Origin: Salipaludibacillus sp. LMS25
GTDB taxonomy: Bacteria; Bacillota; Bacilli; Bacillales; Salisediminibacteriaceae
Length of the DNA stretch: 64,000 bases
Assembly (NCBI RefSeq): GCF_024362805.1
Contig: NZ_CP093299.1
Span: 1,550,001 to 1,614,000 of the forward strand
Direction: 5' to 3'
This document shows, piece by piece, positions 1,936 through 64,000 of this stretch (position 1 is its first letter; every line of letters starts with the position of its first letter). Under the pieces are notes generated by a model. That model was not told the DNA's origin, did not search any database, and saw nothing but the letters and a program-made list of their open reading frames with translations. The position numbers and the translations under genes are program-made.

Positions 1936-1990
1936 ATAAAGCTAAGCATCAATCAGTGGGAGTTTTACTGCCCCTTAAGAGTGGGATAAA
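1936..1990 (+). repeat. bcr1-like repeat, subfamily A, short (55 bp) form
   Basis: It begins ATAAAGCTAAGC and ends AAGAGTGGGATAAA. The central 104 bp of the full element is missing. The junction is exactly at GTGGGAGTTTT/ACTGCCCC, where the full element has two near-identical copies of GTGGGnGTTTT. Confidence 0.85.
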
Positions 1991-1992
1991 AT

Positions 1993-2026
1993 GACAAGAA
2001 GATATAAAAACTATTTTCTTCTTGTC
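1993..2026. other. Perfect inverted repeat beside repeat
   Basis: A 10-bp perfect stem, GACAAGAAGA/TCTTCTTGTC, with a 14-nt A/T-rich loop directly follows the short repeat. No T-tract follows on the plus strand. Its role is unclear: a weak terminator or part of a decayed element. Confidence 0.4.
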
Positions 2027-2275
2027 CTCCTTAAGGGTCATCTACTCCCCCAGAGCGATTATGCTAAAATGTCCTTGTTTTCTTACAAAAATGTAAGCTT
2101 CATTTAAGAATAACCAATCGCAAAAATGATAGGACCTCATTAAGATAAAAATATAGAACAGATTGAGAGGATTTATTTTAAAAAACTATGAAAACACAGT
2201 GATAAGCTGAAGATACTAGCGAAAACGCCGACGTTTTTTAAACAAATATAGTAGGTTTTTAAGCACAGACACGCT

Positions 2276-2432
2276 ATAAAACGCCCCTTCAATCAGTGGA
2301 GTTTTCATTTTTCTCCCACTGACTGGTAGTTGAGTGAATCAGGATTAGCGGCCGTTACCTCCCGCCTATGTAGATTTATCTCTCCTCCCTATTTTGAGAC
2401 TGGCGTTTTTCAGACGGTTATCTGTGTTAAAA
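2276..2432 (+). repeat. bcr1-like repeat, subfamily B, full length
   Basis: It starts ATAAAACGCCCCTTCAATC and ends in the B-type sequence CAGACGGTTATCTGTG with a degenerate TTAAA. It contains hairpin 1 (AATCAGTGG/CCCACTGA) and the B-type long hairpin (GGCCGTTACCTCCCGCC with GGCGTTTTTCAGACGG). It lies 31 bp upstream of the glycosyltransferase start. Confidence 0.85.
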
Positions 2433-2463
2433 TTTCATCCTTTTAGAGAAAGAAGGAAAAGTT

Positions 2464-3696
2464 ATGAATATTGGACTATTTACCGATACGTATCATCCAC
2501 AAATCAATGGCGTTGTGACGTCAATTAATCTATTAGAAAAGGAATTGGCAAGGCGTGGACATAACGTATACATTTTTACATCAACTGACCCCCATGCCGA
2601 CATAAAAGCAGAGAAAGGCAGAGTCTATCGTTTTTCAAGTTTGCCGTTCATCTTTTTCAAAGAAAGGCGACTTGCCGTTGCTGGATTATTCAAGCTAGCA
2701 AGACTCGTGAATCGGCTCGACATTGATGTCATTCATACCCATACAGAATTTTCATTAGGCATGATGGGGATTTTTGCTGCTAGAAAATACGATTTACCAA
2801 TCGTACATACCTATCACACGATGTATGAGGACTACTTGCATTATATTGGCAATGGGAAGTTCGTAAAGCCCTCAACAGTAAGGAAAGTAAGCAAATTTTA
2901 TTGCAATCAGATGGACAAAACAATTGTTCCGTCCGAGAAAGTACAAACCGTTTTAGAAAATTATGGTGTCAGCAACGACATTAAGGTGATACCCACAGGG
3001 ACAGATTTTCATCAATTTAAACTAAAAAAGCAACACCTGCACGAGTTAAATCAGTTAAAAGAGCAATTAGGTATCCATGAGGGCCCCACTTTATTATCTG
3101 TCGGCCGCTTATCTCAGGAGAAAAACGTCGAGACAATTTTACAGGCAATGCCAGCAATTCTAAATGAACACCCTGCCGCTAAGCTTGTCATTGTTGGTGA
3201 CGGACCGATGAAAAAGCAATTAACGGACCTTGCACATACCCTTCAAATTGGAAGCTCTATTGTTATTACTGGAGCTGTTCCATGGCAAGAAGTGAATAAC
3301 TATTACCAACTGGGGGATTTGTTTATTAGTGCCTCCACTTCCGAAACACAGGGACTGACCTTGTCAGAAGCCATCGCTTCGAAAACGCCGGTGGTAGCAA
3401 AGGCCGACCCCAGCCTAGATGCCTTAGTAACTGACGGAGAATCGGGATTTGTCTATCGAACAAACGAAGGTTTAGCCGATGCCGTCATTAACGCTCTATC
3501 TGATGAAGTTTATTTAAAAAGAATGGCTGTTACAGCATTTGAAAGAAGTCAATGTTTATCTGTCACCAACTTCGGCAACAACATCTTGGACGTGTACCGG
3601 GAAGTCGTGACAGCAAAAAACCAACTGTATAAACAGTCATCAAGACTAACGGGGCACAGACGTTGGATGCGCTCTCTGTTTATGATCGGAAAATAA
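2464..3696 (+). CDS. GT4 glycosyltransferase, likely diacylglycerol glucosyltransferase (LafA-like)
   Basis: Retaining glycosyltransferase of 410 residues with two Rossmann domains. The N-terminus reads GLFTDTYHPQINGVVTS, the acceptor-domain signature of 1,2-diacylglycerol 3-glucosyltransferases. The donor-domain EX7E motif is in SETQGLTLSEA near residue 290. A cytoplasmic, membrane-associated enzyme is expected, putting glucose on diacylglycerol to make the glycolipid anchor of lipoteichoic acid. It is the first gene of a three-gene operon (24 bp to the next) ordered like listerial lafA-lafB-lafC. The start has GAAGGAAAAGTT upstream. The acceptor is inferred from family and context; other GT4 lipids are possible. 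Confidence 0.75.
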   Translation: MNIGLFTDTYHPQINGVVTSINLLEKELARRGHNVYIFTSTDPHADIKAEKGRVYRFSSLPFIFFKERRLAVAGLFKLARLVNRLDIDVIHTHTEFSLGMMGIFAARKYDLPIVHTYHTMYEDYLHYIGNGKFVKPSTVRKVSKFYCNQMDKTIVPSEKVQTVLENYGVSNDIKVIPTGTDFHQFKLKKQHLHELNQLKEQLGIHEGPTLLSVGRLSQEKNVETILQAMPAILNEHPAAKLVIVGDGPMKKQLTDLAHTLQIGSSIVITGAVPWQEVNNYYQLGDLFISASTSETQGLTLSEAIASKTPVVAKADPSLDALVTDGESGFVYRTNEGLADAVINALSDEVYLKRMAVTAFERSQCLSVTNFGNNILDVYREVVTAKNQLYKQSSRLTGHRRWMRSLFMIGK

Positions 3697-3720
3697 TAAA
3701 ACAAGAAGAAGGCAGGAACT

Positions 3721-4770
3721 ATGATGCTAAAACTTAATATGATGTCATCAGCAGAAAAAGTAAAAGGTCAAGGGGTGGCTTCCGCATACAAAGAACTTGT
3801 TAATTTACTCAACGACTATGAGAAAGACACTTATTACTTAACAATCAACAAAAATATGCCTGTGGATGTTACCCATTATCATACAGTCGATTTCCCGTTT
3901 TACTTGTCTACGTTTGGGAGCAAAAAGAGGGGAACGAAAGTGGGATATGTGCATTTTGTTCCAGAGACGTTAGAGGGTAGCTTGAAACTTCCTCTTGGAA
4001 CAAAATCCTTATTTAGCCGATATTTAATATCGTTTTACAAGCGGATGGATTGGCTGGTCGTCGTCAACCCCTTATTTATCCCGAAGCTTGAAGCGTACGG
4101 TATTAAAAAAGAAAAAATAAAATACATTCCTAATTTTGTCTCCAATAAAACGTTTCATCCCATTGAGAAAGAGGATAAAATAGCCATACGTAAAAAGTAC
4201 GGAATAGCAGAAAATGCCTTTGTCGTTATGGGAGCGGGACAAGTACAGCATCGAAAAGGAATACTGGATTTTATCAAAGTCGCTGATTATTTACCAGATG
4301 TTCACTTTATATGGGCAGGCGGGTTCTCTTTTGGAAAAATTACCGCAGGTTACAAGGAATTAAAGAAGATCTATGACAACCCTCCAGCTAATGTCACATT
4401 CACTGGCATCATCGACCGCTCAACCATGAGCGATTACTATAATTTGTCAGATATGCTATTTTTGCCGTCCTATAACGAGCTTTTTCCAATGACAATTCTT
4501 GAGGCAATGAGCTGCGGTCTACCCGTTTTGATTAGAGATTTGGAATTATACACTGTCATATTAGACGGCTACTACCTTAAAGGTAATAGCAATAAAGCCT
4601 TTACTGCCGCCATTGAGCAATTAAAACATGATCCTTCCTATTATGAACAAGCACAGGAGCTTGCTACTAAAGGAGCCGCCTACTATTCCGAGGAGCGACT
4701 CTGGAAAATATGGAAAGACTTTTATCATGAGATAGCAGGAATCAAACACAATGAAAAAACGTCTGTTTAA
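3721..4770 (+). CDS. GT4 glycosyltransferase, second glycolipid sugar transferase (LafB-like)
   Basis: Glycosyltransferase of 349 residues with a GT-B fold. The donor domain contains GAGQVQHRKGILDFIKVA, and the EX7E motif lies in NELFPMTILEAMSCGLPV (around residues 253-261). It resembles LafB/CpoA-type enzymes that add a second hexose to monoglucosyl-diacylglycerol. It sits between the LafA-like gene and a membrane protein, overlapping the latter by 20 nt. AAGAAGGCAGGAACT gives the ribosome-binding site. The donor sugar (galactose or glucose) cannot be told from the sequence. Confidence 0.72.
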   Translation: MMLKLNMMSSAEKVKGQGVASAYKELVNLLNDYEKDTYYLTINKNMPVDVTHYHTVDFPFYLSTFGSKKRGTKVGYVHFVPETLEGSLKLPLGTKSLFSRYLISFYKRMDWLVVVNPLFIPKLEAYGIKKEKIKYIPNFVSNKTFHPIEKEDKIAIRKKYGIAENAFVVMGAGQVQHRKGILDFIKVADYLPDVHFIWAGGFSFGKITAGYKELKKIYDNPPANVTFTGIIDRSTMSDYYNLSDMLFLPSYNELFPMTILEAMSCGLPVLIRDLELYTVILDGYYLKGNSNKAFTAAIEQLKHDPSYYEQAQELATKGAAYYSEERLWKIWKDFYHEIAGIKHNEKTSV

Positions 4771-5806
4771 TATCATCCTTATCTTCACTATTAGTATTGG
4801 GTTTATTGCTTATCATTTTCGAACAGTTGATACTGCTTCCGTTTGGGACGGATTAAAAAACGCCCATATCGGTTGGCTTCTTGGTGGTATGTGCGCTATG
4901 TTTTTGTATTGGCTGCTCGAGGCATTCGTCCTCCATCGGATATCAAGGAAAGTGACCATTCACTCAACTGTCGGGGAATCATTTAGAATTACTTTGGCAG
5001 GGCAATTTTTTAATACGATTACACCGCTTGCCACCGGTGGCCAACCGGCACAACTGTATATACTGACGAAAAACGGAATGGACGCCGGTGCGGCAAGCTC
5101 TGTCCTTTTAATTAAACTCATTGTCTATCAAGGGATGCTCGTTGTAAATTCTCTTATCGTCTTGTTGTTCGGGTACCACTATTTGCTTAACGGGTCGCTT
5201 CCAAAGATGAGTGTATTAATTTTGATGGGGTTTGCTCTTAACACGCTTTTTATCGTGGCTTTAATAGTGTTAGGAAAAAACAAGAGAATAGCTTCTTTAG
5301 TCGTTCACTTTCTATTAAAACCCGTTTCTTTTTTCACAAAGAATGGCACATATTCATCATTGAAAGAAAACGTTGAGCAAAAAATGAACTTATTTCATGC
5401 AGAAAGCAAACGAATAAGCGTTGATTTGAAATTGCTGTTACAATGTTGTGTACTAACAACCTTGCAATTGTGGCTGTTTTTCAGTATTCCTTATTTTGTG
5501 TTACAAGGAGTCGGTGCGGCACCGCTTGATCTTTTACAAATTATTGCGTTTCACACTTTTATCATTATGTTTTCTTCGCTAATTCCGATACCTGGCGGGA
5601 GTGGCGGTGCTGAATTAAGCTTTTCACTGTTGTTTGGTCTTATCCTTGATCCCACAACACTTGTCTTAAGCCTGTTCTTATGGCGCTTTATCACGTATTA
5701 CAGCTGTATTTTGTTCGGGTCCATTTCCTTGATGGTTAAAAAGAAAGAGAAGGCTCAAGACTTTGGAAAAACTGCCAGGGGAGTTGAAATGCATCCTCAT
5801 CGGTAG
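4751..5806 (+). CDS. YbhN/MprF-type membrane protein (flippase-like)
   Basis: Polytopic membrane protein of 351 residues, about eight hydrophobic segments, matching the lysylphosphatidylglycerol synthase transmembrane region family (UPF0104). The conserved segments GQFFNTITPLATGGQPAQL and SLIPIPGGSGGAELSF are diagnostic. No synthase domain is attached. It overlaps the preceding glycosyltransferase by 20 nt, so translation is coupled. By position it corresponds to LafC. Members are thought to move or bind lipids; glycolipid translocation to the outer leaflet is a reasonable inference, not shown here. A GC-rich hairpin at 5812-5833 follows the stop. Confidence 0.75.
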   Translation: MKKRLFNIILIFTISIGFIAYHFRTVDTASVWDGLKNAHIGWLLGGMCAMFLYWLLEAFVLHRISRKVTIHSTVGESFRITLAGQFFNTITPLATGGQPAQLYILTKNGMDAGAASSVLLIKLIVYQGMLVVNSLIVLLFGYHYLLNGSLPKMSVLILMGFALNTLFIVALIVLGKNKRIASLVVHFLLKPVSFFTKNGTYSSLKENVEQKMNLFHAESKRISVDLKLLLQCCVLTTLQLWLFFSIPYFVLQGVGAAPLDLLQIIAFHTFIIMFSSLIPIPGGSGGAELSFSLLFGLILDPTTLVLSLFLWRFITYYSCILFGSISLMVKKKEKAQDFGKTARGVEMHPHR

Positions 5807-5811
5807 ATTTA

Positions 5812-5833
5812 CCCCCCTCCTATTTGAGGGGGG
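5812..5833. other. GC-rich hairpin after the glycolipid operon
   Basis: Stem CCCCCCTC/GAGGGGGG with a 6-nt loop, 5 nt after the stop codon. It lacks a T-tract on either side, so it may stabilise the mRNA end rather than act as a canonical terminator. Confidence 0.4.
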
Positions 5834-5984
5834 AAGCTCTATTTTAGGGTAAAACGAAACTAAAATGTATGTTCCACCATACAAGACTTCCTGTTATTTT
5901 GCGCGCCATAATGCGTCTACTCACTCACCTTAACCTCACGGTGGTTTGGTTCAGCTTGTTCCAACAAGCTAGTTATCCCATGTG

Positions 5985-6172
5985 TATAGGCCTATTTCAT
6001 CACACAAACGACACGTGTGAAAAACGACTCCTACATGGATCTTCTGCTATAGACGGACGTTTTCCCGCAGGCTCGACTTCAGCTAAAAGATGCAATAAGA
6101 CCTCTTGTATCAGTGGATCTTCAAACGTCGTTGATCCTCCGGGAGCTACCGTCTTTCACTGCAGCCCTTTAA
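5985..6172 (-). repeat. Second dispersed repeat family (C), copy 1
   Basis: It matches 32806-32985 over most of its length: shared blocks include GATCTTC, CGTTTTCCCG, GGCTCG, CTTCAGCTAAA, GATGC, GTGGATCTTC/TTGGATCTTC, CGTCG and CTTTCACTGCA. It is oriented on the minus strand by analogy with similar Bacillus intergenic repeats that begin CAGTGAAAGGCGG. No coding capacity was recognised. The stretch 5807-6226 otherwise holds nothing identifiable. Confidence 0.7.
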
Positions 6173-6226
6173 AAGCAACTATTTCATACGTATAGTTAGA
6201 AATTGACTAATTAAGTAGGTGATCTT

Positions 6227-6772
6227 TTGTTTACGTGGATAAAAGATGGGAAAGGAGCTTCTTTAACCCTTTTCCTTATATCAATTTTAGTTCTTAGTAT
6301 ATCTTTTCTAATAGTAGCCATAAATGATTTAAGAGACGAAGAGTTAACTAGGATATTAAATTTATTAGAAACTGATGGCATCCAAGCATACGCTGTTTTT
6401 GGGTTGATAGCTCTTATATTTTTAGGTGCTATTATAGCACACATGTTTTTCGTATCTGTTTTTTTACACCTTATTTTAAAAGTTATCTTTAGAATTCCTA
6501 TGGCGTTCGATAGATTCTTTAAAATCATGAAGGTTTTTTACATATTCATTGGATTAGGTATATGTTGGCAGCTTATTGTGAGTGATAGACTACTTGCGCC
6601 TATAATATTCAATCCATTTATCATAGTAGGATTTATAGTAATGTATTTTTTATTCCGTTTCTTAACTGATGTTAGGAGATTTAAACCTTTTCTCTTTACT
6701 ACATTTTTATATGGTTCTTGCTTAGTAGTTACTAAAATATCTTCAGGATCACCGCCGTCCCAATGGTTATAG
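6227..6772 (+). CDS. Hypothetical four- to five-TM membrane protein
   Basis: Product of 181 residues, not recognised. Hydrophobic segments lie near residues 12-32, 55-85 (probably spanning), 103-120 and 126-147, with short charged loops such as DLRDEELTRIL. The start is TTG, preceded by AAGTAGGTGATC; no in-frame ATG exists near the N-terminus. Base composition is clearly A/T-richer than its neighbours, suggesting recent acquisition. A strong terminator at 6833-6872 follows, so it is probably an expressed single-gene unit. Confidence 0.6.
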   Translation: MFTWIKDGKGASLTLFLISILVLSISFLIVAINDLRDEELTRILNLLETDGIQAYAVFGLIALIFLGAIIAHMFFVSVFLHLILKVIFRIPMAFDRFFKIMKVFYIFIGLGICWQLIVSDRLLAPIIFNPFIIVGFIVMYFLFRFLTDVRRFKPFLFTTFLYGSCLVVTKISSGSPPSQWL

Positions 6773-6832
6773 CAAATTTAGACGGACTATTAAATTATTT
6801 TATTAGTCTGTCACAAAATGACTATAAATGCT

Positions 6833-6872
6833 AAAAGCACTTCAAATTAGACATGATTGAAGTGCTTTTTTT
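6833..6872 (+). terminator. Rho-independent terminator
   Basis: Stem AAGCACTTCAA/TTGAAGTGCTT followed by a run of Ts, about 60 bp after the hypothetical membrane protein. A second hairpin (GACGGACTA/TAGTCTGTC, 6781-6812) precedes it. Confidence 0.8.
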
Positions 6873-6935
6873 AATTTGACCTTATTTCAATGTAAAAGAT
6901 TTTGGTTTTACAATACTACATAACGTCAGCTCTCC

Positions 6936-7094
6936 ATAAAGCTAAGCTTCAATCAGTGGGAGTTTTCCTTCATCCCCCACTGATTGTTAGTTTAACTTAT
7001 CGGACCTTTAGGGGCAGTTTATCCCCCGCCTAAACTTTTCGATCTTCTTAAGTTTTGAGGTGGGGGTTTTACTGCCCCTTAAGAGTGGGATAAA
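6936..7094 (+). repeat. bcr1-like repeat, subfamily A, full length (159 bp)
   Basis: Complete copy from ATAAAGCTAAGC to GTGGGATAAA. Hairpin 1 pairs AATCAGTGGGAG with CCCCCACTGATT. Hairpin 2 pairs CCTTTAGGGGCAGT...CCCCCGCCTAAA with TTTTGAGGTGGGGG...ACTGCCCCTTAAG. First of a direct tandem pair in a convergent intergenic region. Confidence 0.92.
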
Positions 7095-7122
7095 AAACAG
7101 TTTCAAAAAAGGGGATTTAGTC

Positions 7123-7281
7123 ATAAAGCTCAGCTTCAATCAGTGGGAGTTTTCCTTCATCCCCCACTGATTGTTAGTTTAACTTATGGGACCTTTAGGG
7201 GCCGTTTATCCCCCACCTAAACGTTTCGACCTTCTTAAGTTTTAAGGTGGGGGTTTTACTGCCCCTTAAGAGTGGGATAAA
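7123..7281 (+). repeat. bcr1-like repeat, subfamily A, full length (159 bp)
   Basis: Second member of the tandem pair, same orientation, 28 bp after the first, with a few substitutions (for example GCTCAGC for GCTAAGC and GGGGCCGT for GGGGCAGT). Both arms of both hairpins are preserved. Confidence 0.92.
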
Positions 7282-7336
7282 AAATAGTCATCCTTAAACT
7301 AGTATATTTCTCCCTTTTATTAGGTCTCCTCACTCA

Positions 7337-8182
7337 TTATTGAGCTTTTTTCTTCACGCTTGTTTGCGAACTTGCTTTCTTCTTTGTTCCTTGCTTTCCT
7401 GTTTTCTTTTTGTTTTTATCAATAGATGCCTGTAATGCGGACATGAGGTCTGTGACATTGGACGCTGCCGGCGCTGGCTTTCCAGTCGTTTCCACCGTCT
7501 TTTCTCCTGCCCGTTTCTGTTCGATTACATCCAGTAAGGCATTACGATAGTCATCTTGATACTTTTCCGGGTCAAATGGGGTCGTCAGTTGCTTAATTAA
7601 CATGAGCGCCGTATCCAATTCTTTTTTTGTAATAGTTTGATTATCAGGAATCGCGACCTCCCCAGCATGTCGGACTTCATCAGGAAAATGGATCGTTTCC
7701 ATCACCAATGTGTTTTCATAAACACGAACGATAGCCAATTGCTCTTTCGAACGGATCGTAATTTTGGCTACACCTATTTTTCCTGATTCTTCTAATGATT
7801 GCCTTAATAACACGTACGCCTTTCCTCCGCCAGTATCGGGAGCAAGGAAATAACTTCTGTCAAAATAAATAGGATCAATTTCTTCCAATTTAACGAAATC
7901 GATAATCTCAACCGCTTTGCCTTCACTTTCTTTCCGTAAGCTTTCTAAATCATCATCATCAAGAACAACAAATTTATTTTTCTCATATTCATATGCTTTG
8001 ACGATATCCTCGTTTGCTACTTCTTTTTCACAGCTGCTACATACCTTTTCATACGAAATTGGCGTGTGGCACTCTTTATGAAGCTGCCTTAATTTGATGT
8101 CTTTATTTTCTGTTGCAGCGTGAAGCTTAACTGGAATATTGACTAAGCCAAAGCTGATCGTTCCTTTCCACATCGTATGCAT
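7337..8182 (-). CDS. ku: DNA end-binding protein Ku
   Basis: Bacterial Ku of 281 residues. It begins MHTMWKGTISFGLVNIPVKL, the canonical Ku N-terminus, with a CHTPISYEKVCSSC zinc-like cysteine pattern near residues 38-51. The core beta-barrel is followed by a lysine-rich tail (KKKTGKQGTKKKASS) that should bind DNA and help recruit LigD. Ku homodimers hold double-strand breaks for non-homologous end joining, important in spores. It is divergent from ligD with 101 bp between, so the two can share a regulatory region. Length is normal for Bacillus. Confidence 0.95.
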   Translation of the reverse strand: MHTMWKGTISFGLVNIPVKLHAATENKDIKLRQLHKECHTPISYEKVCSSCEKEVANEDIVKAYEYEKNKFVVLDDDDLESLRKESEGKAVEIIDFVKLEEIDPIYFDRSYFLAPDTGGGKAYVLLRQSLEESGKIGVAKITIRSKEQLAIVRVYENTLVMETIHFPDEVRHAGEVAIPDNQTITKKELDTALMLIKQLTTPFDPEKYQDDYRNALLDVIEQKRAGEKTVETTGKPAPAASNVTDLMSALQASIDKNKKKTGKQGTKKKASSQTSVKKKAQ

Positions 8183-8283
8183 GATATCACCTGTTTTTAG
8201 TTACTATCCTGCTAGTTTTTCGGCGTAATTATTCAGGCGATTTATGGCTAAAATAAGGATAGTTGTCTGAGGAGGTGTAAGAG

Positions 8284-10110: not shown

Positions 10111-10218
10111 TTCTATTCAGTTATTAGGAATATTAACAACAGCTATATCTTTAGTTAAGAGAAGTACTAGCATATACTTTTTCTAATGACACCTCTCCTT
10201 ACAAGATTGAATCAGAGA

Positions 10219-10262
10219 ACAAAACAAGGCTCCCCTCATAAGTAACTACTTATGGGAGAGCC
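10219..10262 (-). terminator. Terminator of pta
   Basis: On the minus strand, GGCTCTCCCATAAGTA pairs with TACTTATGAGGGGAGCC and is followed by TTGTTTTGTT. It sits 16 bp past the pta stop codon. Confidence 0.8.
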
Positions 10263-10278
10263 ATGGTCATCACGGTTA

Positions 10279-11253: not shown

Positions 11254-11314
11254 AGGAATTCCTCCTTTATTACTCACTATCTATTAGCATACTCCTTCTG
11301 GAGAAAAAAATAAA

Positions 11315-17765: not shown

Positions 17766-17924
17766 ATAAAACGAACCTTCAATCAGTGGGAGCTTTCGTT
17801 ACCCTTCCAATTATTGGTAGTTGAGTCAATTAGGACATTCGCGGCCGTTATCTCCCTCCTAATTAGATTTATCTCTTCTCTCTCTTTTAAGGCGGGAGTT
17901 TTACGGACGGTTATCTGTGATAAA
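17766..17924 (+). repeat. bcr1-like repeat, subfamily B, full length (159 bp)
   Basis: From ATAAAACGAACCTTC to ATCTGTGATAAA. Hairpin 2 pairs GGCCGTTATCTCCCTCC with GGCGGGAGTTTTACGGACGG. Hairpin 1 is degraded in its right arm (TTCCAATTATTGG). Confidence 0.9.
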
Positions 17925-20394: not shown

Positions 20395-20504
20395 TTTATC
20401 CCACTCTTAAGGGGCGATAAAACCCTCACCTCAAAACTTCAGAAGATCGAATAGTTTAGGTGGGGGATGAAGGAAAACGCCCACTGATTGAAGCTTAGCT
20501 TTAT
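20395..20504 (-). repeat. bcr1-like repeat, subfamily A, internally deleted (110 bp), minus orientation
   Basis: The only copy on the minus strand. On that strand it reads ATAAAGCTAAGCTTCAATC and goes from TTCATCCCCCAC straight to CTAAACTATTCG. The lost segment lies between two copies of ATCCCCCAC present in full elements, and a single copy remains at the junction. The right end is intact. Confidence 0.9.
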
Positions 20505-23961: not shown

Positions 23962-23963
23962 CT

Positions 23964-25032: not shown

Positions 25033-25083
25033 CACCGCAGTAAAATTTATGCGGATTCTTTACGGACGGTTCTCTGTGATAAA
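25033..25083 (+). repeat. bcr1-like repeat, subfamily B right-end remnant
   Basis: Only the right end survives: TTTACGGACGGTTCTCTGTG and ATAAA. It is preceded by a collapsed hairpin CCGCA/TGCGG. The final ATAAA (25079-25083) is at the same time the first ATAAA of the next element. Confidence 0.75.
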
Positions 25084-25133
25084 GCTAAGCTCCAATCAGT
25101 GGGAGTTTTTCTGCCCCTTAAGAGTGGGATAAA
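25079..25133 (+). repeat. bcr1-like repeat, subfamily A, short (55 bp) form
   Basis: ATAAAGCTAAGCTCCAATC to GTGGGATAAA with the same internal deletion as the copies at 1936 and 28531. It is joined head-to-tail to a B remnant through a single shared ATAAA. Confidence 0.85.
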
Positions 25134-28530: not shown

Positions 28531-28585
28531 ATAAAGCTAAGCTTCAATCAGTGGGAGTTTTACTGCCCCTTAAGAGTAGGATAAA
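28531..28585 (+). repeat. bcr1-like repeat, subfamily A, short (55 bp) form
   Basis: ATAAAGCTAAGCTTCAATC to AAGAGTAGGATAAA, with the 104-bp internal deletion at GTGGGAGTTTT. Third copy of this deletion form in the window. Confidence 0.88.
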
Positions 28586-31140: not shown

Positions 31141-31297
31141 ATAAAGCTAAGCTTCAATCTAGGCGTTTTCCTTCATCCCCCACTGATTGATAGTTTAACT
31201 TATGGGACCTTTAGGGGCAGTTTATCCCCCACCTAAACGTTTCGACCTTCTTAAGTTTTGAGGTGAGGGTTTTACTGACCCTTAAGAGTAGGATAAA
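31141..31297 (+). repeat. bcr1-like repeat, subfamily A, near full length (157 bp)
   Basis: ATAAAGCTAAGCTTCAATC to AAGAGTAGGATAAA. The left arm of hairpin 1 is damaged (CTAGGCG in place of AGTGGGAG); hairpin 2 is intact. It lies upstream of yojF. Confidence 0.9.
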
Positions 31298-32474: not shown

Positions 32475-32805
32475 GCCCCCTCTCCAGCTTCTGTTTCTTA
32501 TTAACATAAGTGAGGAAATAGACAACGGTAACGAGCGCATGCAAAATAAAGTGTGCTCACAACAATTACGTATGTGATCGTTAAGTTATAACTACGAAAT
32601 AGCCAAGTAACCATTACAGCGTTGTCGATGTAGCTGTTAAGGTAGGTATTAAAAGACGTCGTTTATGGTGAGCGTGATAATCTAAAAACTCATTAACATA
32701 AAAATAGAGGTCACATTCATAGAACACTCCAACTATTTGAAAAAGTGTGGTAATGGCTATACATTTAATAAAAGGCTGGTTTTATTATTTGATCTATTGA
32801 ACCAA

Positions 32806-33045
32806 TTTCATCATACAAAATACTCTAGTAAAAAACGACTAAGCCATTGATCTTCCGCTACAGGCGCACGTTTTCCCGAGGCTCGTCTTCAGCTAAACGA
32901 TGCGATAAAACCTTTCTTATCATTGGATCTTCAGACGTCGCTGATCCTCTGGGAGTCTCCGCCTTTCACTGCATAAACGCACTTGGTATATAATAATTAT
33001 CATGGTTCGTGTTGAAAATCCTTTGTGACATTCATTCTATTGTTT
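32806..33045 (-). repeat. Second dispersed repeat family (C), longest copy
   Basis: The core (about 32850-32985) matches 5985-6172. The flanks match 58268-58395: TTGAACCAATTT, CATCATACAAAATAC and GTAAAAAA on the left, and GTTCGTGTTGAAAAT with GTGACATTCATTC on the right. It is therefore the most complete of three copies. No protein is encoded. Confidence 0.65.
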
Positions 33046-33334: not shown

Positions 33335-33496
33335 ATAAAGCTAAGCTTCAATCAGTGGGCGTTTTCCTTCATCCCCCACTGATTGTTCGTTTAACTTATG
33401 GGACCTTTAGGAGCAGTTTATCCCTCACCTAAACTTTTCGACGACCTTCTTAAGTTTTGAGGTGAGGGTTTTACTGCCCCTTAAGAGTGGGATAAA
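33335..33496 (+). repeat. bcr1-like repeat, subfamily A, full length (162 bp), inserted in a 5' leader
   Basis: ATAAAGCTAAGCTTCAATC to GTGGGATAAA, with 3 extra bases (GAC) in the loop of hairpin 2. It is preceded by AAAGGGGGCT and followed immediately by ATG. It thus separates a ribosome-binding site from the small gene at 33497. Confidence 0.92.
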
Positions 33497-34580: not shown

Positions 34581-34739
34581 ATAAAGATAAGCTTCAATCA
34601 GTGGGAGGTTTCCTTCATCCCCCACTGATTGTTCGTTTAACTTATGGAACCTTTAGGGGCAGTTTATCCCCCACCTAAACGTTTCGATCTTCTTAAGTTT
34701 TGAGGTGGGGATTTTACTGCCCCTTAAGAGTGGGATAAA
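34581..34739 (+). repeat. bcr1-like repeat, subfamily A, full length (159 bp)
   Basis: ATAAAGATAAGCTTCAATC to GTGGGATAAA. Both hairpins are intact with a few paired and unpaired substitutions (GGAACC for GGGACC; GGGGATTTT for GGGGGTTTT). Confidence 0.92.
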
Positions 34740-48232: not shown

Positions 48233-48335
48233 CTTCTTATCTTTTCAAGCTTAACGCTTGCTGGAATTGGCACTGGACTCAAAAGTCTGTTGCCGAGGTT
48301 TCATAGGGCCAGTCCCTCCACCTCTCTGGATAAGA
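48233..48335 (-). promoter_or_regulatory. SAM riboswitch (S box) controlling metQNI
   Basis: On the minus strand: TCTTATCCAGAGAGGTGGAG, GGACTGGCCCTATGAAACC, TCGGCAACAG, GTGCCAATTCCAGCAAGC, then AGATAAGA closing P1. All core S-box elements are present in order. With SAM the downstream terminator forms and transcription stops, so methionine import and the linked oxidase gene are expressed under methionine limitation. Confidence 0.95.
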
Positions 48336-48448
48336 AAACATATTTAATTGTTTGATTGTTATGATAACTTTACACATTGTCAGATAAAATGTCAATTAGT
48401 TTTTGAAAATAACGTCCGTTTTTTTTGAATATTAGATAATTTTGTCGA

Positions 48449-48577
48449 ATAAAGCTAAGCTTCAATCAGTGGGAGTAGAGTGAATCAGGACATTAGTACC
48501 CGTTATCTCTCGCCTAAATAGAGTTAGCTCTCCTCTTTATTTTGACACGGGTGTTTTTCGGACGGTTAGTGTGATAA
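48449..48577 (+). repeat. bcr1-like repeat, chimera (A left end, B right end), deleted
   Basis: The left end ATAAAGCTAAGCTTCAATC is subfamily A. After GTGGGAG the sequence continues with B-type TAGAGTGAATCAGGACATT and ends TTTTTCGGACGGTTAGTGTG with a shortened ATAA. The right arm of hairpin 1 is deleted. Confidence 0.85.
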
Positions 48578-48610
48578 TTTCATGCCTCTCATTAACTAAG
48601 AAGCATTTTT

Positions 48611-55213: not shown

Positions 55214-55555
55214 ATGAAACATAAAGCTAAGCTTCAATCAGTGGGCGTTTTCCTTCATCCCCACTGATTGTTAGTTTAACTTATGGGACCTTTAGAGGCA
55301 GTTTATCCCCCACCTAAACTTGTCGATCTGCTTAAGTTTGGAGGTGAGGGTTTTACTGCTCCTTAAGAGTGGGATAAAGAATTAGAAGTGACATTGACAT
55401 TCACTATTGCACAACATTACTTGACTGTACAAGGGCAGCTTCTCCGGAAAAACCGGGATATCGATGCCTTTGTTTATGGGGTCAAATTTCCAACTGATAA
55501 ATATGAAAAAGACCTGTTAACAGCATTAAAAGCGTATAGTAAACGTAACCGATAA
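55214..55555 (+). pseudogene. Small gene interrupted by a bcr1-like element (possible PilZ-domain remnant)
   Basis: GGAGGGGGAGGAGAGTCAA then ATG AAA CAT AAA, where the element begins. After it the frame resumes GAA TTA GAA GTG and runs to a TAA at 55553. Removing 55226-55378 gives one uninterrupted 62-codon frame. In place the element brings an in-frame TAA at 55364. The product (TLTFTIAQHYLTVQGQLL ... DAFVYGVKF ...) resembles the second half of a PilZ c-di-GMP-binding domain. The frame is also open upstream of the ATG to about 55160, so the ancestral gene may have been longer. Confidence 0.6.
55221..55378 (+). repeat. bcr1-like repeat, subfamily A, full length (158 bp), inside a gene
   Basis: ATAAAGCTAAGCTTCAATC to GTGGGATAAA. 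Its two terminal ATAAA copies correspond to a single ATAAA in the reconstructed target gene. This fixes the element boundary. Confidence 0.93.
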
Positions 55556-55654
55556 CAACTATTTAGAAGCTTCCCTTTTATCTTTTCAAAGAGGTTTAGT
55601 CTGTTCACACATACGGGAATAGAGTAGGTGAGACTATTTAAAGGGAGGCTAACA

Positions 55655-56314: not shown

Positions 56315-56392
56315 AAGTCAATTTGTGTGTTCAGGCTTCCTCTTTATTTACAGTACGAAATGAACAGGATGACCATTCAAGTAGGACAAAAG

Positions 56393-56417
56393 GGGCAGGA
56401 GAAAGAATCTCCTGCCC
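56393..56417 (+). terminator. Terminator after the DJ-1/PfpI gene
   Basis: GGGCAGGAG pairs with CTCCTGCCC around a 7-nt loop, followed by AAATCTTTGG. The T-tract is poor. Confidence 0.55.
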
Positions 56418-56564
56418 AAATCTTTGGCGTAAAGAGGATACACGTCGTGGCCATCGTACCCTCTTGTTAGCTTATTTTAAAAAACGGTGAGACATCTTAA
56501 CGAAATTTCGTCTACTTAGCTGGCTAGTTACAAGTTTTTGTTACCTGCCCTTATTTTGCTCCTC

Positions 56565-58214: not shown

Positions 58215-58267
58215 GTCTCTACACCTTTCTACAACAGAAGTTCTGTTCTTAATTATTATCTTTCATG

Positions 58268-58395
58268 ATTGAACCAATTTTATCATACAAAATACACCTG
58301 TAAAAAATGACCATGCAATATTAAATGTTATCATTGTTTGCATGTTCGTGTTGAAAATTCAATAGTGACATTCATTCAGTTGACATTTTTCTAAC
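58268..58395 (-). repeat. Second dispersed repeat family (C), core-deleted copy
   Basis: The flanks match 32806-33045 (TTGAACCAATTT, ATCATACAAAATAC, GTAAAAAATGACC on the left; GTTCGTGTTGAAAAT and GTGACATTCATTC on the right), but the central 100 or so bases are absent. The remaining sequence to 58690 holds nothing recognised. Confidence 0.55.
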
Positions 58396-58695
58396 TGCTT
58401 ATTAATCGCTCCTCCATGCAGTCGGTAAAAGTAACTTGTCTGTTTAGATCACATGTCTATTAATCGTTATATCATAAATAAGTCTGGATATCTATGGATG
58501 GCTTCACTTTTCAATCACTTAGGACTTGTATGTCACCTCTATATTAGCTTACTCCAAAAGGGCTAATCACCCTTTGTTTTCTCGTGACTATTTAGTAGGA
58601 CTTCTACACATTAGTTAGCATATTTCGTAACAAATGTGTAAATGTATTGATCACTTTAGTCCTATTATGCTACTTTTGGTATGTTCAATATAACA

Positions 58696-58797
58696 CAATA
58701 ATAATGGGCAAACCTGTTGAAAAACAGGGACGCAAAGCTTCAGGTCTAACGCTTCTTGGAAAGTTATGATGGCTGAGCTGCATAACATATTGGCATT
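58696..58797 (+). promoter_or_regulatory. Cyclic di-GMP-I (GEMM) riboswitch
   Basis: Conserved core GGGCAAACC, P2 hairpin CCTGTT-GAAA-AACAGG with a GNRA tetraloop, GGACGCAAAGC, then AGGTCTAA and GATGGCTGAGCTGC forming P3 with a tetraloop-receptor-like region. P1 pairs CAATAATAATG (58696-58706) with CATAACATATTG (58781-58792). These are the hallmarks of the class I c-di-GMP aptamer. It controls the decarboxylase-chemoreceptor operon through the terminator at 58816. Confidence 0.93.
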
Positions 58798-58815
58798 TTT
58801 ACATATGTTACCGCC

Positions 58816-58843
58816 TCCCCATTATTAAAGATGGGGATTTTTT
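58816..58843 (+). terminator. Expression-platform terminator of the c-di-GMP riboswitch
   Basis: TCCCCAT pairs with ATGGGGA, followed by six Ts. Its left arm (CCCATTATT, 58818-58826) is also complementary to AATAATGGG (58700-58708) in the aptamer's P1 strand, giving a possible antiterminator. A further competing stem is TAACATAT with ATATGTTA (58803-58810). Confidence 0.85.
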
Positions 58844-58873
58844 ATATTTACTTATATGATTGGAGAGTGCTTA

Positions 58874-60532
58874 ATGACGTCACTAAATGATGTGCAAAAA
58901 CTCTTCCCTAGTGAAGATGGCAATCGTGAAAGCAGAGAAAACGTTCTGCAATTAGTTACAACTCTTTTAGAGAATATGGATAGGCTTAAGCGGCCAGACT
59001 ACGCTAGTTTAGGACATGAGAAACAGCGTGAAGCAAATTTTTATCAGCAGCTTGTTCAAACAGCTGAAGTCCCCCTACAGGGTGAAAGTCTATCTCACTT
59101 AGTAGACAGTATGACAAGCTTAATGACAGGCCACCCCTATCATTCCCGATACTTTTTGACAAATGTTCTCCCGATGGCTAGTATTCCTGGGCTCATTGGT
59201 CAGCTCACAGCCTCCCTATTGAATGGGAATAATTTATGGGATGTTTACGGCCCTGCCGGTGCGGAGGCAGAAACGAAAGTCATTGCCATGATGTCACGAA
59301 TTGCTGGTTATGATGTTAATGAGAGCTGGGGGTATACGACATGGGGAGGACAGGGAGCCGTCTTTACCGGCCTTCGCCTGGCAATTGCAAAACATTGTCC
59401 TGACGCAGTGGAACACGGTGTTCCTGATAATCTGTATGTGTTCTCCTCTGAGCAAGCCCATTATAGCTTAATTAAATCAGCTGAAGCCACTGGTATTGGA
59501 CGAAGCCATGTGATTAAGGTTCGTACAAAGCGAGATCACTCCATGGACGAACAAGATCTTGCCTCTAAAATGACAGAGGTGATAGAAGAAGGAGGTAAAC
59601 CCGTTTACGTTGTGGCCACGACTGGCACGACTGACAATTTTGGTATTGACAATATTCAGGCGATAAAAGATACGACCGATGCCCTTACAAATATGCATGC
59701 ATTAGCACCTGTTCATATTCATGCTGATTCAGCCCTAGGAGGATTCTATGCCTTTTTTAACGAGTATGATTTTACGGTAAATTCGTTAAACTTTGATGAA
59801 AATGTGCTTAAAGGATTACGGACAATTACGTCTAAAATGAAACATTTACATTTAGCAGACAGCTTATGTTTTGACTTTCAGAAACTTGGTCAAACCCCTT
59901 ATGCGACCAGTCTTTTCTTAGTGAAAAACAAAGAAGATTTGTCTTTAATCGATTTAGATGCTGCCGAATCCCCTTATGTAGGGGACAGAGGTTACGGTGA
60001 CTACCACACAAGCTACACATTGGAATGCTCAAGAATGGCTAGCTCCATTGCTATTATGGCTGCTTTACAGCTTTTCGGGGTGGAAGGCTACCAAATACTG
60101 CTCGCTAACTATATAAAGGTAAACATTACTTTCCGCGAAAAGCTCCTAGCAGCTTTACCTGACATATGTGTAACGAACCCTTTAAACCCCGGTCCTATTA
60201 CGGCCTTTAGGTTGTATCAGAGGACAGGTAACTGGGAGATGGAAGCAACTGGCCAGTTAACGAAAGAAGAAATCATGAAAACAAATAGAAGAAATGAAGC
60301 CCTTTTTGAGTATTTCGGTACCCATAGAGCCCGTATCTTCCTCGGTGACACAAAAAAATTCGCCCTTGTCACATGCAAAGATCAAACGGAGTTGCAGCCG
60401 GTATACGTATCTAAGTTTTTTACGATCTCACCTTATACAGAAACAGAGCACGTCCCTGATGTCATCACCTTTATACAAGACGCTATAGAAGCGACAAAAT
60501 CAACAGAAACCGAGGTAACATTCTCATGTTAA
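58874..60532 (+). CDS. Group II PLP-dependent amino-acid decarboxylase
   Basis: PLP enzyme of about 552 residues. PLP-stacking His196 ([13 protein letters not shown]), Asp285 ([15 protein letters not shown]) and Schiff-base Lys337 ([15 protein letters not shown]). The residue before the lysine is Q rather than the usual H, which sets it apart from classical glutamate or aromatic decarboxylases. Substrate unknown. The start at 58874 follows GGAGAG (58862-58867); an ATG at 58856 has no site. It is c-di-GMP-riboswitch controlled and overlaps the chemoreceptor gene by 7 nt, so the two are translated together. Confidence 0.85.
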
Positions 60533-62223
60533 ATGTCTCATCATCCTTATTTAAAAAGTTTCTTCTTGGCATCATGGTGCCTATGATTCTCTTTGCTCTT
60601 ATCTTTAGCAGTGTCATTTATTATTTTTCTAGTCACTTAATTGATGACTATGTGATACCTAGTTTTGAAGATGCCCTTACAGTAAATATGGACCTTATGA
60701 CAGACAGCCTTGACAATCAATTAATACTCGCTGCTCATGAAGGTGACACGAATGCCCTTGCAGAGCTTCAACATACATTAGACCAGTTTCAAGCGTCTAC
60801 TGGCGTGGCAAATGCATACGTTTTAGGCCAATCAGGTGGTGAAGAGTATATTATTGCCTTAAGCCAGTATGAAGAGACGATGGAAGCTTATCCACTCTCT
60901 GATGATATGCACACAGCTATGGGCGGAACAGACGCTATAAGTGACATATATAATGATGAATTTGGAACATTCAAGTCTTACTTTTCAGCGGTTGAAGGAA
61001 CAGATGCCATTCTGGGATTAGATCGTGATGCTTCGTTTGTTAGTAAAGCTAAATCTCTTGGGATCACCATATCTCTTATCTTAGCCGGTGGCATGATTAT
61101 CGCCTCTATCGTGATTTCTACTATCATTACTCGAAAAATCAGCCAACCTGTTACAACAATCGCTCACCATGCGGAAAAAGTAGCAGAAGGCAACTTAAAC
61201 ATCGAGGAGATTCACATTACATCTAGAGATGAGTTAGGCCAGCTATCGGCTCATTTTAATAAAATGATTCGCGATTTACGGAAGATGATTTCGCAAGTTG
61301 GGGATAAAGCAACCCAAGTGGCCGCCACTTCGGAGGAGCTTTCTGCAAGCTCTGAACAGACGAGCGAGTCCGTCTCCCATGTGAGTGAAACAATTCAAAT
61401 GATCGCCTCTTCTTCAGGGGATCAACAAGAACAAATGGAAGGATTAAATGATTACTGTAAAGCTTTATCAGTTGAGATGAACGAAGTAGCCAATGAAGCG
61501 ACAGCAACAGCGCAAATGTCAGAGGAAACAGCCCACGCTGCTAAAGAAGGCGCTACTTCCATTGATCAAGCGATTACGCATATGGCGGCGATTAATGATC
61601 GTGTTAGCCAGTCTGCGGATGTGGTGACAAAACTACAAGAAGAGTCCCGCGCAATCGGCGAAATTGTGACGATTATTACAAATATTGCTGACCAAACGAA
61701 TCTCCTAGCTCTCAACGCCTCAATCGAAGCAGCCCGAGCAGGAGAAAATGGGAAAGGGTTTGCTGTCGTAGCTGATGAAGTACGAAAATTAGCTGAAGAA
61801 TCTGGAAATGCCGCTAATCAAATTAAAGAAAAAATCGACCAAGTACAAAGCCAAGCTATCGCCTCTGTTGAAGCCATGACTGAAGGCTATCAAGCTGTAA
61901 AAGAAGGCACGGAAGCTGTTAATCAGGCTAATGAATCATTTGAACGAATCGAAAAAACGGCTATCGACTCCTCTAACAAAGTAAATAGTATTAAAGACGC
62001 ATTGGCAATGATGGACGAAGCCATCTCTGCTAACGTAAAAACAATTTCGGATTTAACAGAAATATCGAACAATGTTTCTAGTAGTATACAAAGTGTTTCT
62101 GCAACGAGCGAGGAACAAACTGCTATCATGGAAGAAGTAGCTAGTGCATCTGAGTCGTTATCTAAAATGGCCGAACAATTGCAATATTCGGTCCAAAAGT
62201 TCAATACAGAGAACAAATCATAG
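60526..62223 (+). CDS. Methyl-accepting chemotaxis protein, coupled to the decarboxylase
   Basis: Chemoreceptor of 565 residues. Membrane helix about 12-35; short extracellular sensor of about 135 residues, of single-Cache size; second helix near 180-200 ([20 protein letters not shown]); HAMP; and signalling domain with tip [20 protein letters not shown]. The small acidic sensor region has no recognised ligand motif. ATGTTAA overlap with the upstream decarboxylase implies coupling, and both lie under the c-di-GMP riboswitch. Linking motility response to c-di-GMP fits known GEMM targets; the decarboxylase partner is unusual. Confidence 0.92.
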
Positions 62224-62231
62224 CACTTAAG

Positions 62232-62272
62232 AAAAACCTAGCGTGGGCAACAGCTTCCATGCTAGGTTTTTT
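62232..62272 (+). terminator. Terminator of the decarboxylase-chemoreceptor operon
   Basis: AAAACCTAGC pairs with GCTAGGTTTT (with an inner TGG/CCA), followed by TTTTTTG. Confidence 0.85.
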
Positions 62273-62322
62273 GAGGTCTCATATAATCATAAGCTTCCTA
62301 ATCACATGAGCAAGATCCTGCT

Positions 62323-62465
62323 ATAAAGCTAAGCTTCAATCAGTGGGGGGTTTTCGTTCTTCACCCAGTTGAGTGAATCTGGACTTTAGATTCCTTTATC
62401 TCCCGCCTATATAGATTTATCTCTATTTTCAGGGCGAAGTTTTACGGACGATGATCTGTAATAAA
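62323..62465 (+). repeat. bcr1-like repeat, chimera (A left end, B right end)
   Basis: The left end ATAAAGCTAAGCTTCAATC is subfamily A. From GTTGAGTGAATCTGGAC it is B, ending TACGGACGATGATCTGTA and ATAAA. Part of hairpin 1's right arm is missing. It lies between convergent genes. Confidence 0.87.
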
Positions 62466-62472
62466 TAACTTA

Positions 62473-63678
62473 TTATTCTTCATTCCATTGACCAAGTCGT
62501 TTAATGATGGCAACTTTCAAGTAATTCCCTTCTGGGTAATGACGATCTACCTGATAATCGTCTGGGAGACTGTGTGATTCCACAACCTTATAGCTTATCC
62601 CTTCTTCTCTAAATGACTGGTCGATCATTTTCCGGAACTTTTTACGACTAACACCACTATGGTTTATTGAAGCCACTATGATACCATCCTCTTCAGTGAG
62701 GCGAATAGCTTGCTGCAATAATCCTGAGTAATCTTTTGCAGCGCTAAATGTATATTTTTTAGATCTGGCAAAGCTAGGCGGGTCTAAAATAACAAGTCCA
62801 TAACGATCACCCCGCTTCTCCGCCCGTTTGAAAAAGGCGAACACATCCTCAACGATAATATGCTGGGTGGAAGGGTCCACGTTATTAAGAGTAAAGTGTT
62901 CAGCGGTTTTCTCTCGACTTCGGTTCGCTAAATCGACACTTGTGGTTTTTTCAGCACCACCTAACGTAGCGAATACTGAAAAGGCACCGGTATATGAAAA
63001 CGTATTAAGAACAGTTCGCCCCTTTGCATATGTATTAAGTAACGCTTCACGAACGTGGCGCTGATCCATGAATACCCCTACCATTGCACCTTCATTTAAA
63101 TAGACAGCAACGTTCACACCGTTCTCTTTCACGATAAGTGGGAATTCTCCCCGTTCCCCCATAATAAAATCATCGTCTTCTACATATTTACCATCGGTGG
63201 CAAAGCGTTTTTTCTCATAGATACCTCGATAAGCTGTATGTGTCGAGAGAACATCTACAATCGTACTTTTAAAGCTGTATATTCCTTCGCTGTACCAATT
63301 TATCAAGTAGAAGCCGTCAAAATAATCAATTGTCAAGCCCCCGATGCCATCACCTTCTCCATTAAAAAGGCGAAAGGCGGTGGTACGTTCATTTTCAAAA
63401 AACGACCGCCTTCTTCCAAAAGCCTTTATTAACTTGCGCCGAAATAGCCCCTCATCAACAAGATCATCTTTTTTGTCAGTGACGATCCACCCAAGACCTT
63501 TATTTTGCAGACCATAATAGCCTTTTCCAATAAATGTGCCTTCTTCGTCTATCACATTCAGTATTTGCCCTTCTTCTACTAGCTTGTCTGGGTTAACAAC
63601 TGCTTCTTTAAGTAGCAGCGGATACCCGGATCGATACTTCTTTGAAAAACTCATGTTTATTTTAATGGTCGTTTCCAT
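62473..63678 (-). CDS. RlmI-family 23S rRNA (cytosine-C5) methyltransferase (YwbD-like)
   Basis: Two-part protein of about 401 residues. An N-terminal PUA domain (GYPLLLKEAVVNPD ... GTFIGKGYYG) is followed by an EEHEE middle region and a Rossmann methyltransferase with SAM motif VLNTFSYTGAFSVFATLGGA and catalytic VILDPPSFARSKK. It is of the family of E. coli RlmI and B. subtilis YwbD, which methylate cytosines in 23S rRNA. GGGAGGG 7 nt upstream sets the ATG at 63678; the frame runs 11 codons further. Confidence 0.88.
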   Translation of the reverse strand: METTIKINMSFSKKYRSGYPLLLKEAVVNPDKLVEEGQILNVIDEEGTFIGKGYYGLQNKGLGWIVTDKKDDLVDEGLFRRKLIKAFGRRRSFFENERTTAFRLFNGEGDGIGGLTIDYFDGFYLINWYSEGIYSFKSTIVDVLSTHTAYRGIYEKKRFATDGKYVEDDDFIMGERGEFPLIVKENGVNVAVYLNEGAMVGVFMDQRHVREALLNTYAKGRTVLNTFSYTGAFSVFATLGGAEKTTSVDLANRSREKTAEHFTLNNVDPSTQHIIVEDVFAFFKRAEKRGDRYGLVILDPPSFARSKKYTFSAAKDYSGLLQQAIRLTEEDGIIVASINHSGVSRKKFRKMIDQSFREEGISYKVVESHSLPDDYQVDRHYPEGNYLKVAIIKRLGQWNEE

Positions 63679-63810
63679 CCATAGTCCCTCCCGTTCATCA
63701 ACGTCTATCATACAAAACTTTTTCAGTAAAAGGAAGGAACGGTGACGTAATTAATCTTTAAATGTTTTAAGGAAACATTCCCCCACCTAAGGCGCGTAGC
63801 GTAAATGGGA

Positions 63811-63883
63811 ACGTTTAATCAAGTAGCGTCTTAACGTTATCTGATTAAACGATGTTTCAGTGTATTGAATCGAGTTCGCTCGT
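63811..63883 (+). repeat. Short dispersed repeat (D), copy 2
   Basis: GATTAAACGATGTTTCAG then TGTATTGAATCGAGTTCGC matches the minus strand of 53335-53388. CGTTTAATC (63812-63820) pairs with GATTAAACG (63843-63851), so this copy can fold. Confidence 0.5.
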
Positions 63884-63964
63884 TCCTACTTACTTTTTTC
63901 TCCGGGTTATGCTACAGTAAATTGTTGAACAGCATGGGGTTTTGACAAAGGTATGAACCTTTAA

Positions 63965-64000
63965 ATAAAGCTAAGCTTCAATCAGTAGGACTTTTCCTTC
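63965..64000 (+). repeat. bcr1-like repeat, subfamily A, cut by window edge
   Basis: ATAAAGCTAAGCTTCAATC, then AGTAGGACTTTTCCTTC, up to the last base of the window. Left end only. Confidence 0.85.

What the first reader, a model, noticed from the sequence alone, without database searches (positions are those of the whole stretch)
1936..64000. A dense family of about 159-bp structured, ATAAA-bounded repeats: a bcr1-like mobile element, 20 copies in 64 kb
Copies lie at 1936, 2276, 6936, 7123, 16715, 17766, 20395(-), 23854, 25033, 25079, 28531, 31141, 33335, 34581, 38291, 48449, 55221, 62323 and 63965; counting the disrupting copies at 33335 and 55221 once each and the two parts at 25033/25079 separately gives 19, and hairpin-only remnants may add more, so about 20. 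Full copies are 157-162 bp, begin ATAAAGCTAAGC or ATAAAACGAACC and end GTGGGATAAA or CTGTGATAAA. Each folds into a short hairpin and a long interrupted hairpin. Beyond ATAAA the flanks are unrelated, as expected for insertions. From memory, bcr1 of the B. cereus group is about 155 bp, structured and flanked by TTTAT, the complement of ATAAA, and was reported as specific to that group. The genes here do not look like the B. cereus group, so a bcr1-like family may be wider than described, or independently expanded. No transposase is in the window.
Basis: partly seen in the sequence, partly recalled or inferred. Interest (0 to 1): 0.82.

Follow-up and report, generated by a model that had tools for sequence, protein, structure and literature searches.

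The report
Bacilli-wide bcr1-like mobile DNA repeat
A hairpin-forming stretch of about 160 DNA letters, present in hundreds of copies in one bacterium, belongs to a family spread through many genera of Bacilli, and its copies tend to point along the direction of chromosome replication, which hints at how it jumps.

Summary
The host chromosome (4.53 Mb) has 531 matches to the element's 5' end, the reversed control none; 123 model hits in 800 kb of samples scale to about 700 copies. The family is wide: 48 of 398 Bacilli genomes, own included, 28 of 146 genera. Covariation supports two hairpin domains. Copies are bounded by ATAAA (TTTAT on the other strand) and differ between syntenic relatives; one replaced about half of a PilZ-domain gene. 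Orientation follows replication, not transcription: in 107 of 137 copies the TTTAT strand is the lagging-strand template. I favour single-strand (IS200/IS605-like) transposition in trans; no mobiliser was identified, and Y1 genes are not enriched in element-bearing genomes.

The parts
6936..7094 (+). full A-type copy, 159 bp
   Evidence: R1 151.7 bits, E=1.4e-29 (a training row of R1)
7123..7281 (+). full A-type copy, 159 bp; aligned stretch in G001 lacks it
   Evidence: R1 138.8 bits; ragged alignment
34581..34739 (+). full A-type copy; G005 empty, G001 has a B-type copy there
   Evidence: R1 135.8 bits
33335..33496 (+). full A-type copy, 162 bp; no gene disruption shown
   Evidence: R1 134.9 bits (a training row)
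55221..55378 (+). full A-type copy lying in place of the stretch between two ATAAA of a PilZ-domain gene that is intact in G005 and G001
   Evidence: R1 126.8 bits
16715..16868 (+). hybrid copy, B-type 5' end and A-type 3' end
   Evidence: R1 125.5 bits; sequence
17766..17924 (+). full B-type copy, 159 bp
   Evidence: R1 120.5 bits (a training row)
31141..31297 (+). full A-type copy, 157 bp
   Evidence: R1 110.2 bits
38291..38448 (+). full B-type copy, 158 bp
   Evidence: R1 108.4 bits (a training row)
2276..2431 (+). B-type copy with a degenerate right end; a shorter B-type copy at the same place in G001
   Evidence: R1 90.9 bits
62323..62465 (+). internally deleted copy, A-type 5' end, B-type body
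   Evidence: R1 55.6 bits; sequence
48449..48578 (+). hybrid, internally deleted copy, A-type 5' end and B-type 3' part; G005 empty, G001 B-type
   Evidence: R1 52.9 bits
23852..23962 (+). B-type copy lacking hairpin I
   Evidence: R1 47.9 bits; sequence
20395..20504 (-). internally deleted A-type copy; G005 and G001 empty
   Evidence: R1 39.4 bits
1936..1990 (+). 55-bp short form; G001 empty
25033..25083 (+). right end of a B-type copy sharing its ATAAA with the next part
   Evidence: by eye
25079..25133 (+). 55-bp short form at the end of a B-type copy
28531..28585 (+). 55-bp short form
63965..64000 (+). 5' end of a copy cut by the window edge
   Evidence: R1 25.2 bits, E=0.003

Best explanation
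It is a non-autonomous mobile DNA element family of the Bacilli, of which bcr1 is very probably the B. cereus-group branch. Shown: two conserved hairpin domains, ATAAA at both ends, insertion differences between related species, a recent A-type burst over an older B-type layer, and orientation that follows replication rather than flanking genes. Inferred: it moves as single-stranded DNA whose TTTAT strand lies in the lagging-strand template, cut and joined 3' of TTTAT by an enzyme supplied in trans, most likely an HUH Y1 transposase of the IS200/IS605 kind, with the hairpins near the ends as recognition signals. Tandem arrays arise when a copy inserts at another copy's terminal ATAAA. The 55-bp forms arise by deletion between the GTGGGnGTTTT repeats of the two hairpins.
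For: Structure: 93.5% of cells paired against 84.5% in shuffles (0 of 500 reach it), 18 of 35 pairs with changes on both sides. Ends: ATAAA begins 116 and ends 111 of 137 copies. No terminal inverted repeat (sequence). Empty sites found for 7 of 21 elements with two recognised ends in three syntenic stretches; an ATAAA in a relative's gene at the insertion point. Orientation 107 of 137, p=2.4e-11, same direction in all four gene contexts. A-type 96.2% (46 copies) and B-type 89.9% (19) identity to consensus. Copies at another copy's ATAAA. IS200/IS605 elements insert 3' of a short motif, have subterminal hairpins and prefer the lagging-strand template (PMC6006769 and PMC5371812, passages). Recent copies (0.96-0.99 pairwise) in G000, G095, G197, G307, G119, all with Y1; only old copies (at most 0.89) in four genomes without Y1.
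Against: No enzyme identified. Y1 is in 26 of 33 element-bearing genomes I chose and 47 of 60 relatives: no enrichment; G001 and G005 have over 100 copies each and no Y1. The genome's own Y1 element has different ends; no repeat in 34 Y1 neighbourhoods. The young-copy/Y1 link rests on nine genomes picked from high model scores, 4-6 copies each. Orientation bias occurs in other IS families too. The test of which strand folds was inconclusive. Guide pairing not tested. At the empty sites other than PilZ the relatives, about 85% identical, do not preserve an exact ATAAA at the aligned position.
Confidence: 0.55

Rival explanations
1. The same mobile family, moved by a different, unrecognised enzyme, such as a site-specific recombinase acting on a 5-bp core.
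For: Identical 5-bp motifs at both ends would suit a recombinase core; [quoted passage not shown] Y1 is absent from 7 of 33 element-bearing genomes.
Against: The replication-linked orientation and two subterminal hairpins fit single-strand transposition better. Two candidates fit poorly: IS110 (PF01548) is missing from 5 of 9 element-bearing genomes tested and TnpB (PF07282) from all 9. Recombinases were not searched.
Confidence: 0.28
2. A DDE-type MITE whose target duplication happens to be ATAAA.
For: [quoted passage not shown]
Against: No terminal inverted repeat; the duplicated motif is one sequence in most copies (ATAAA at 116 of 137 left and 111 of 137 right ends).
Confidence: 0.07
3. 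An RNA-mediated retroelement: the folded transcript is copied into DNA and joined at replication forks.
For: Structured element, orientation tied to replication.
Against: No reverse transcriptase link was tested; the strand test gives no preference for the transcript-like strand; the precise 5' ends and shared terminal motif are not typical of it (recalled).
Confidence: 0.05
4. A vertically inherited functional element such as a terminator or regulatory RNA, not mobile.
For: Intergenic placement and conserved hairpins.
Against: Differences among syntenic relatives, no match in five of seven same-genus genomes, a gene interrupted, a subfamily burst, orientation independent of flanking genes.
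Confidence: 0.03

Closest known systems
bcr1 of the Bacillus cereus group (Okstad 2004 not held; known here from passages in PMC6542083, PMC3446304, PMC2267715)
   Same: About 150-170 bp, TTTAT at the ends, folded, dispersed, intergenic, variable between strains; a B. cereus-group-type copy (L301) is 78% identical to window A 6936 and 77% to window B 17766 and scores 122.5 bits with R1.
   Different: bcr1 is reported as restricted to the B. cereus group, with an average of 39 and at most 130 full copies per genome; here about 700 by extrapolation, and about 28 genera. Published bcr1 sequence not compared.
IS200/IS605 family and its non-autonomous derivatives
   Same: Hairpins near both ends, insertion next to a fixed pentanucleotide, lagging-strand-template orientation.
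   Different: No transposase gene; ends unlike those of the resident IS200-type element; guide pairing untested.
REP/REPIN sequences with RAYT (TnpA-REP)
   Same: High-copy intergenic hairpins thought to be moved in trans by a domesticated Y1 enzyme (PMC6006769, passages; PMC3116915, listing only).
   Different: The unit is about 160 or 55 bp and ATAAA-bounded; a GTAG-type tag was not sought; no copy within the five neighbourhoods taken at longer Y1 genes of G019 and G026.

Membership tests
bcr1 | Length about 150-170 bp | tested here: met
   Ten best window copies 154-162 bp
bcr1 | TTTAT (ATAAA) at both ends | tested here: met
   116 left and 111 right of 137 copies
bcr1 | Dispersed, mostly intergenic, variable between related strains | tested here: met
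   (species rather than strains compared)
bcr1 | Conserved folded structure | tested here: met
bcr1 | Sequence homology to bcr1 | tested here: inconclusive
   77-78% identity to a B. cereus-group-type copy; published consensus not available
bcr1 | Confined to the B. cereus group (as reported) | tested here: not met
   so I place it as a sister lineage in a wider family, not as bcr1 itself
IS200/IS605 | Encodes a Y1 transposase | tested here: not met
   No coding capacity; no autonomous copy seen
IS200/IS605 | Subterminal hairpins, no terminal inverted repeat | tested here: met
IS200/IS605 | Insertion next to a fixed short motif present in the empty site | tested here: inconclusive
   ATAAA at element ends; exact in the PilZ gene of relatives, not preserved at the other empty sites
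IS200/IS605 | Orientation towards the lagging-strand template | tested here: met
   107 of 137
IS200/IS605 | Guide sequence at the hairpin foot pairing with the cleavage site | not tested
   The terminal motif hardly varies in the copies used
IS200/IS605 | Ends shared with a resident Y1 element | tested here: not met
   Ends of the four intact G000 copies differ
IS110-type element | Partner DEDD transposase in the same genomes | tested here: not met
   Absent from 5 of 9 element-bearing genomes tested

The most novel reading that the evidence does not exclude
bcr1 is one twig of an old, Bacilli-wide family of single-stranded-DNA hitch-hikers without a transposase of their own. They enter the lagging-strand template at TTTAT, are driven in trans by whatever Y1 enzyme the host carries, decay when it is lost, and serve as docking sites for further nested hairpin cassettes.
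Probability: 0.35. Interest if true: 0.75.

Novelty: new member of a known kind. Interest (0 to 1): 0.6.

Why it matters
bcr1 is described in the passages read as confined to the B. cereus group, with an unexplained mechanism. Placing it in a family across many Bacilli genera, with one genome at about 700 copies and an orientation tied to replication, suggests a testable mechanism (single-strand insertion at TTTAT) and gives hosts outside the pathogen group in which to test it. The covariance model could annotate a DNA class that makes up 3.6% of this window.

Tried and rejected
Autonomous copy: end profiles over 1.66 Mb of loci held at the time paired 28 left ends with a right end 220-5000 bp away. 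Five of the longest (1.3-4.2 kb) were printed and their ORFs looked unlike transposases by eye; no family search was run on them. The sixth, window 2276 at 4.8 kb, spans ordinary listed ORFs. The other 22 are under 500 bp.

Y1 neighbourhoods: no repeat in 34. IS110 and TnpB as mobilisers. Y1 presence against element presence: no enrichment.

Which strand folds: in the 40-row alignment G-U 61 against A-C 29, but 18 of the 61 come from one loosely aligned pair; in 123 own copies 180 against 188; within A-type C>T 13, G>A 31 (Fisher p=0.03 against unpaired sites), within B-type 21 and 19. Left inconclusive.

bcr1 itself: paper not held, a recalled accession absent, a recalled 16S stretch in 0 of 398 genomes, a search of papers for sequence words gave one B. 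cereus primer and unrelated hits. The host of the viral-contig copies could not be confirmed by phage or plasmid searches. An exact A-type pattern gave 0 stretches in genome contigs; phage records gave no match.

An early idea that the ATAAA strand is the lagging template was dropped when GC skew put the origin near 1.87 Mb. 46 of 46 A-type right ends in ATAAA is not used as evidence, because that class was picked by its GGGATAA end. Papers on a wider family: searches showed none in their listings; that is no proof of absence.
Full report
OBSERVATION. Repeat search recovers the family as overlapping direct-repeat sets. A covariance model from 40 copies, 4 of them from the window, recovers 14 copies at E<=1e-5, the edge copy at 0.003 and two short forms weakly; the third short form comes, and 25033 from reading. 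The window is bases 1,550,001-1,614,000 of a 4,525,667-bp contig, where the 22-base A-type 5' end has 531 matches with up to three mismatches and the reversed pattern none (B-type ends differ by three bases and are included). Forty 20-kb stretches at 112.5-kb steps, the window filling the one gap, hold 123 hits at E<=1e-5, about 700 genome-wide by extrapolation. The stretches plus window (864 kb) hold 21 short forms, about 110 genome-wide. In the window no Rfam match at threshold falls on a copy.

ANATOMY. On 40 sequences 93.5% of cells pair, against 84.5% in shuffles (0 of 500 reach it) and at most 47.7% when partners are slid; 18 of 35 pairs show changes on both sides. The structure was drawn on this alignment, which favours it over the slid versions for that reason too.

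TWO LAYERS. Of 137 own copies, 57 had at least one end that my simple end classes did not name. A-type full copies (46) average 96.2% identity to their consensus, B-type (19) 89.9%; median pairwise identities are 92.5% and 81.0%. By reading flanks, A-type copies sit at a terminal ATAAA of B-type copies (1134942, 2493308, 459808) or inside one (230060). Six of 137 are A/B hybrids by end class. The short form joins the arms at GTGGGnGTTTT and both variants of the variable base occur, so it probably arises repeatedly. The same fusion shows in other genera (L062, L066, L114, L132, L142, L146, whose output was cut).

MOBILITY. G005 and G001 are syntenic over most of the window (blocks over 250 bp: 83-89% and 76-94% identity). 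Of 21 elements with two recognised ends in the three stretches, 7 have an empty counterpart: window 1936 (G001), 34581 and 48449 (G005), 20395 (both), one of G005 and two of G001. The other 14 are occupied, rearranged or too diverged to call. By eye, 34581 and 48449 carry B-type copies in G001, and 16715 a B-type copy in G005. At 55221 the relatives hold an intact PilZ-domain gene (117 aa in G005, PF07238) with one ATAAA at codons 3-4 and another about 170 bp on. In the window that stretch is missing and the element lies between; the left match is short and by eye. Of seven other genomes of the genus, two match the 5' pattern and five do not. At 33335 no disruption could be shown; G000 has about 1.1 kb more there than G005.

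REPLICATION. GC skew changes sign near 1.87 and 4.24 Mb, and 75% of ORF bases lie on the leading strand so defined. In 107 of 137 copies the TTTAT strand is the leading-strand sequence, that is the lagging-strand template (p=2.4e-11). For 127 copies with an ORF on both sides the direction is the same in every class: genes on the leading strand 38:10, on the lagging strand 14:5, convergent 22:6, divergent 27:5. A-type 5' ends are more biased (56:10) than B-type (23:12), unclassed 28:8. IS200/IS605 elements show such a bias, and so do other IS families (PMC5371812, passages).

RANGE. R1 matches 48 of 398 Bacilli genomes at E<=0.001 per genome, the window's own included, 44 of them below 1e-6, in 28 of 146 genera; at most seven candidates per genome were scored. 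Plasmid copies: Pseudalkalibacillus, two Peribacillus, Cytobacillus, one Klebsiella. Of 29 viral contigs 24 share one flank. L301 and L312 hold a 158-bp copy (122.5 bits). In L301 it lies next to a TIGR03601 gene with the Arg-Arg boundary and [FY]EY end that PMC2674419 (passages) describes; that paper reports the gene in every B. cereus-group genome it studied, with a more distant one in B. licheniformis. A B. cereus-group host is my inference, and so is the identity with bcr1.

MOBILISER. G000 has four identical intact Y1 genes and two damaged ones, in an IS200-type element with other ends, three of four next to TTTA. Y1 is in 26 of 33 element-bearing genomes that I chose and 47 of 60 relatives: no enrichment. 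Sampled copies in four genomes without Y1 are at most 89% alike (five of six loci used in G423, six, four and four in G211, G253, G401). Those in G095, G197, G307 and G119, all with Y1, reach 96-99%, and G000's 98%. This fits decay after loss of the enzyme, but the sample is small and was picked from high model scores. IS110 and TnpB fit poorly; recombinases, DDE and reverse transcriptases were not searched.

VERDICT. The repeat is a very high-copy member of a bcr1-like family far wider than described. How it moves is inferred, not shown.

Noticed in passing
window 5985-6163, 32796-32973, part at 58268-58319: A second, unrelated repeat of about 170-220 bp; 14 blastn rows in 10 of 41 own stretches, so it too is genome-wide.
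   Followed up: partly
L029, L033, L058, L070, L072, L075, L086, L088, L090, L101, L121, L122, L129, L138: In other genera 21 of 133 pattern-matched copies carry extra mini-hairpins with an AGGAY or RTCCT loop, against 47 such hairpins in all 933 kb of those loci. They sit in the hairpin I loop or between the hairpins and some hold further inserts: nested cassettes, perhaps protein-binding.
   Followed up: partly
L050 4296-4763; also L017, L125, L126, L134; window 25033-25133: Head-to-tail copies that share one ATAAA (three in a row in L050).
   Followed up: partly
L295 701-792 (Klebsiella grimontii plasmid pNY3A): A family copy in a Gram-negative plasmid record (72.9 bits): transfer or assembly contamination.
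   Followed up: partly
window 48234-48336 (-) and 58697-58785 (+): SAM and c-di-GMP-I riboswitches; the gene broken at 55221 is a PilZ-domain gene, also c-di-GMP related by family knowledge.
   Followed up: no
L004 (G000, about 3,942,500): An IS200-type element has inserted in the right end of an A-type copy.
   Followed up: no
L082 (Modestobacter, 4.6-kb contig): A family match in an actinobacterial assembly, probably a contaminating contig.
   Followed up: no
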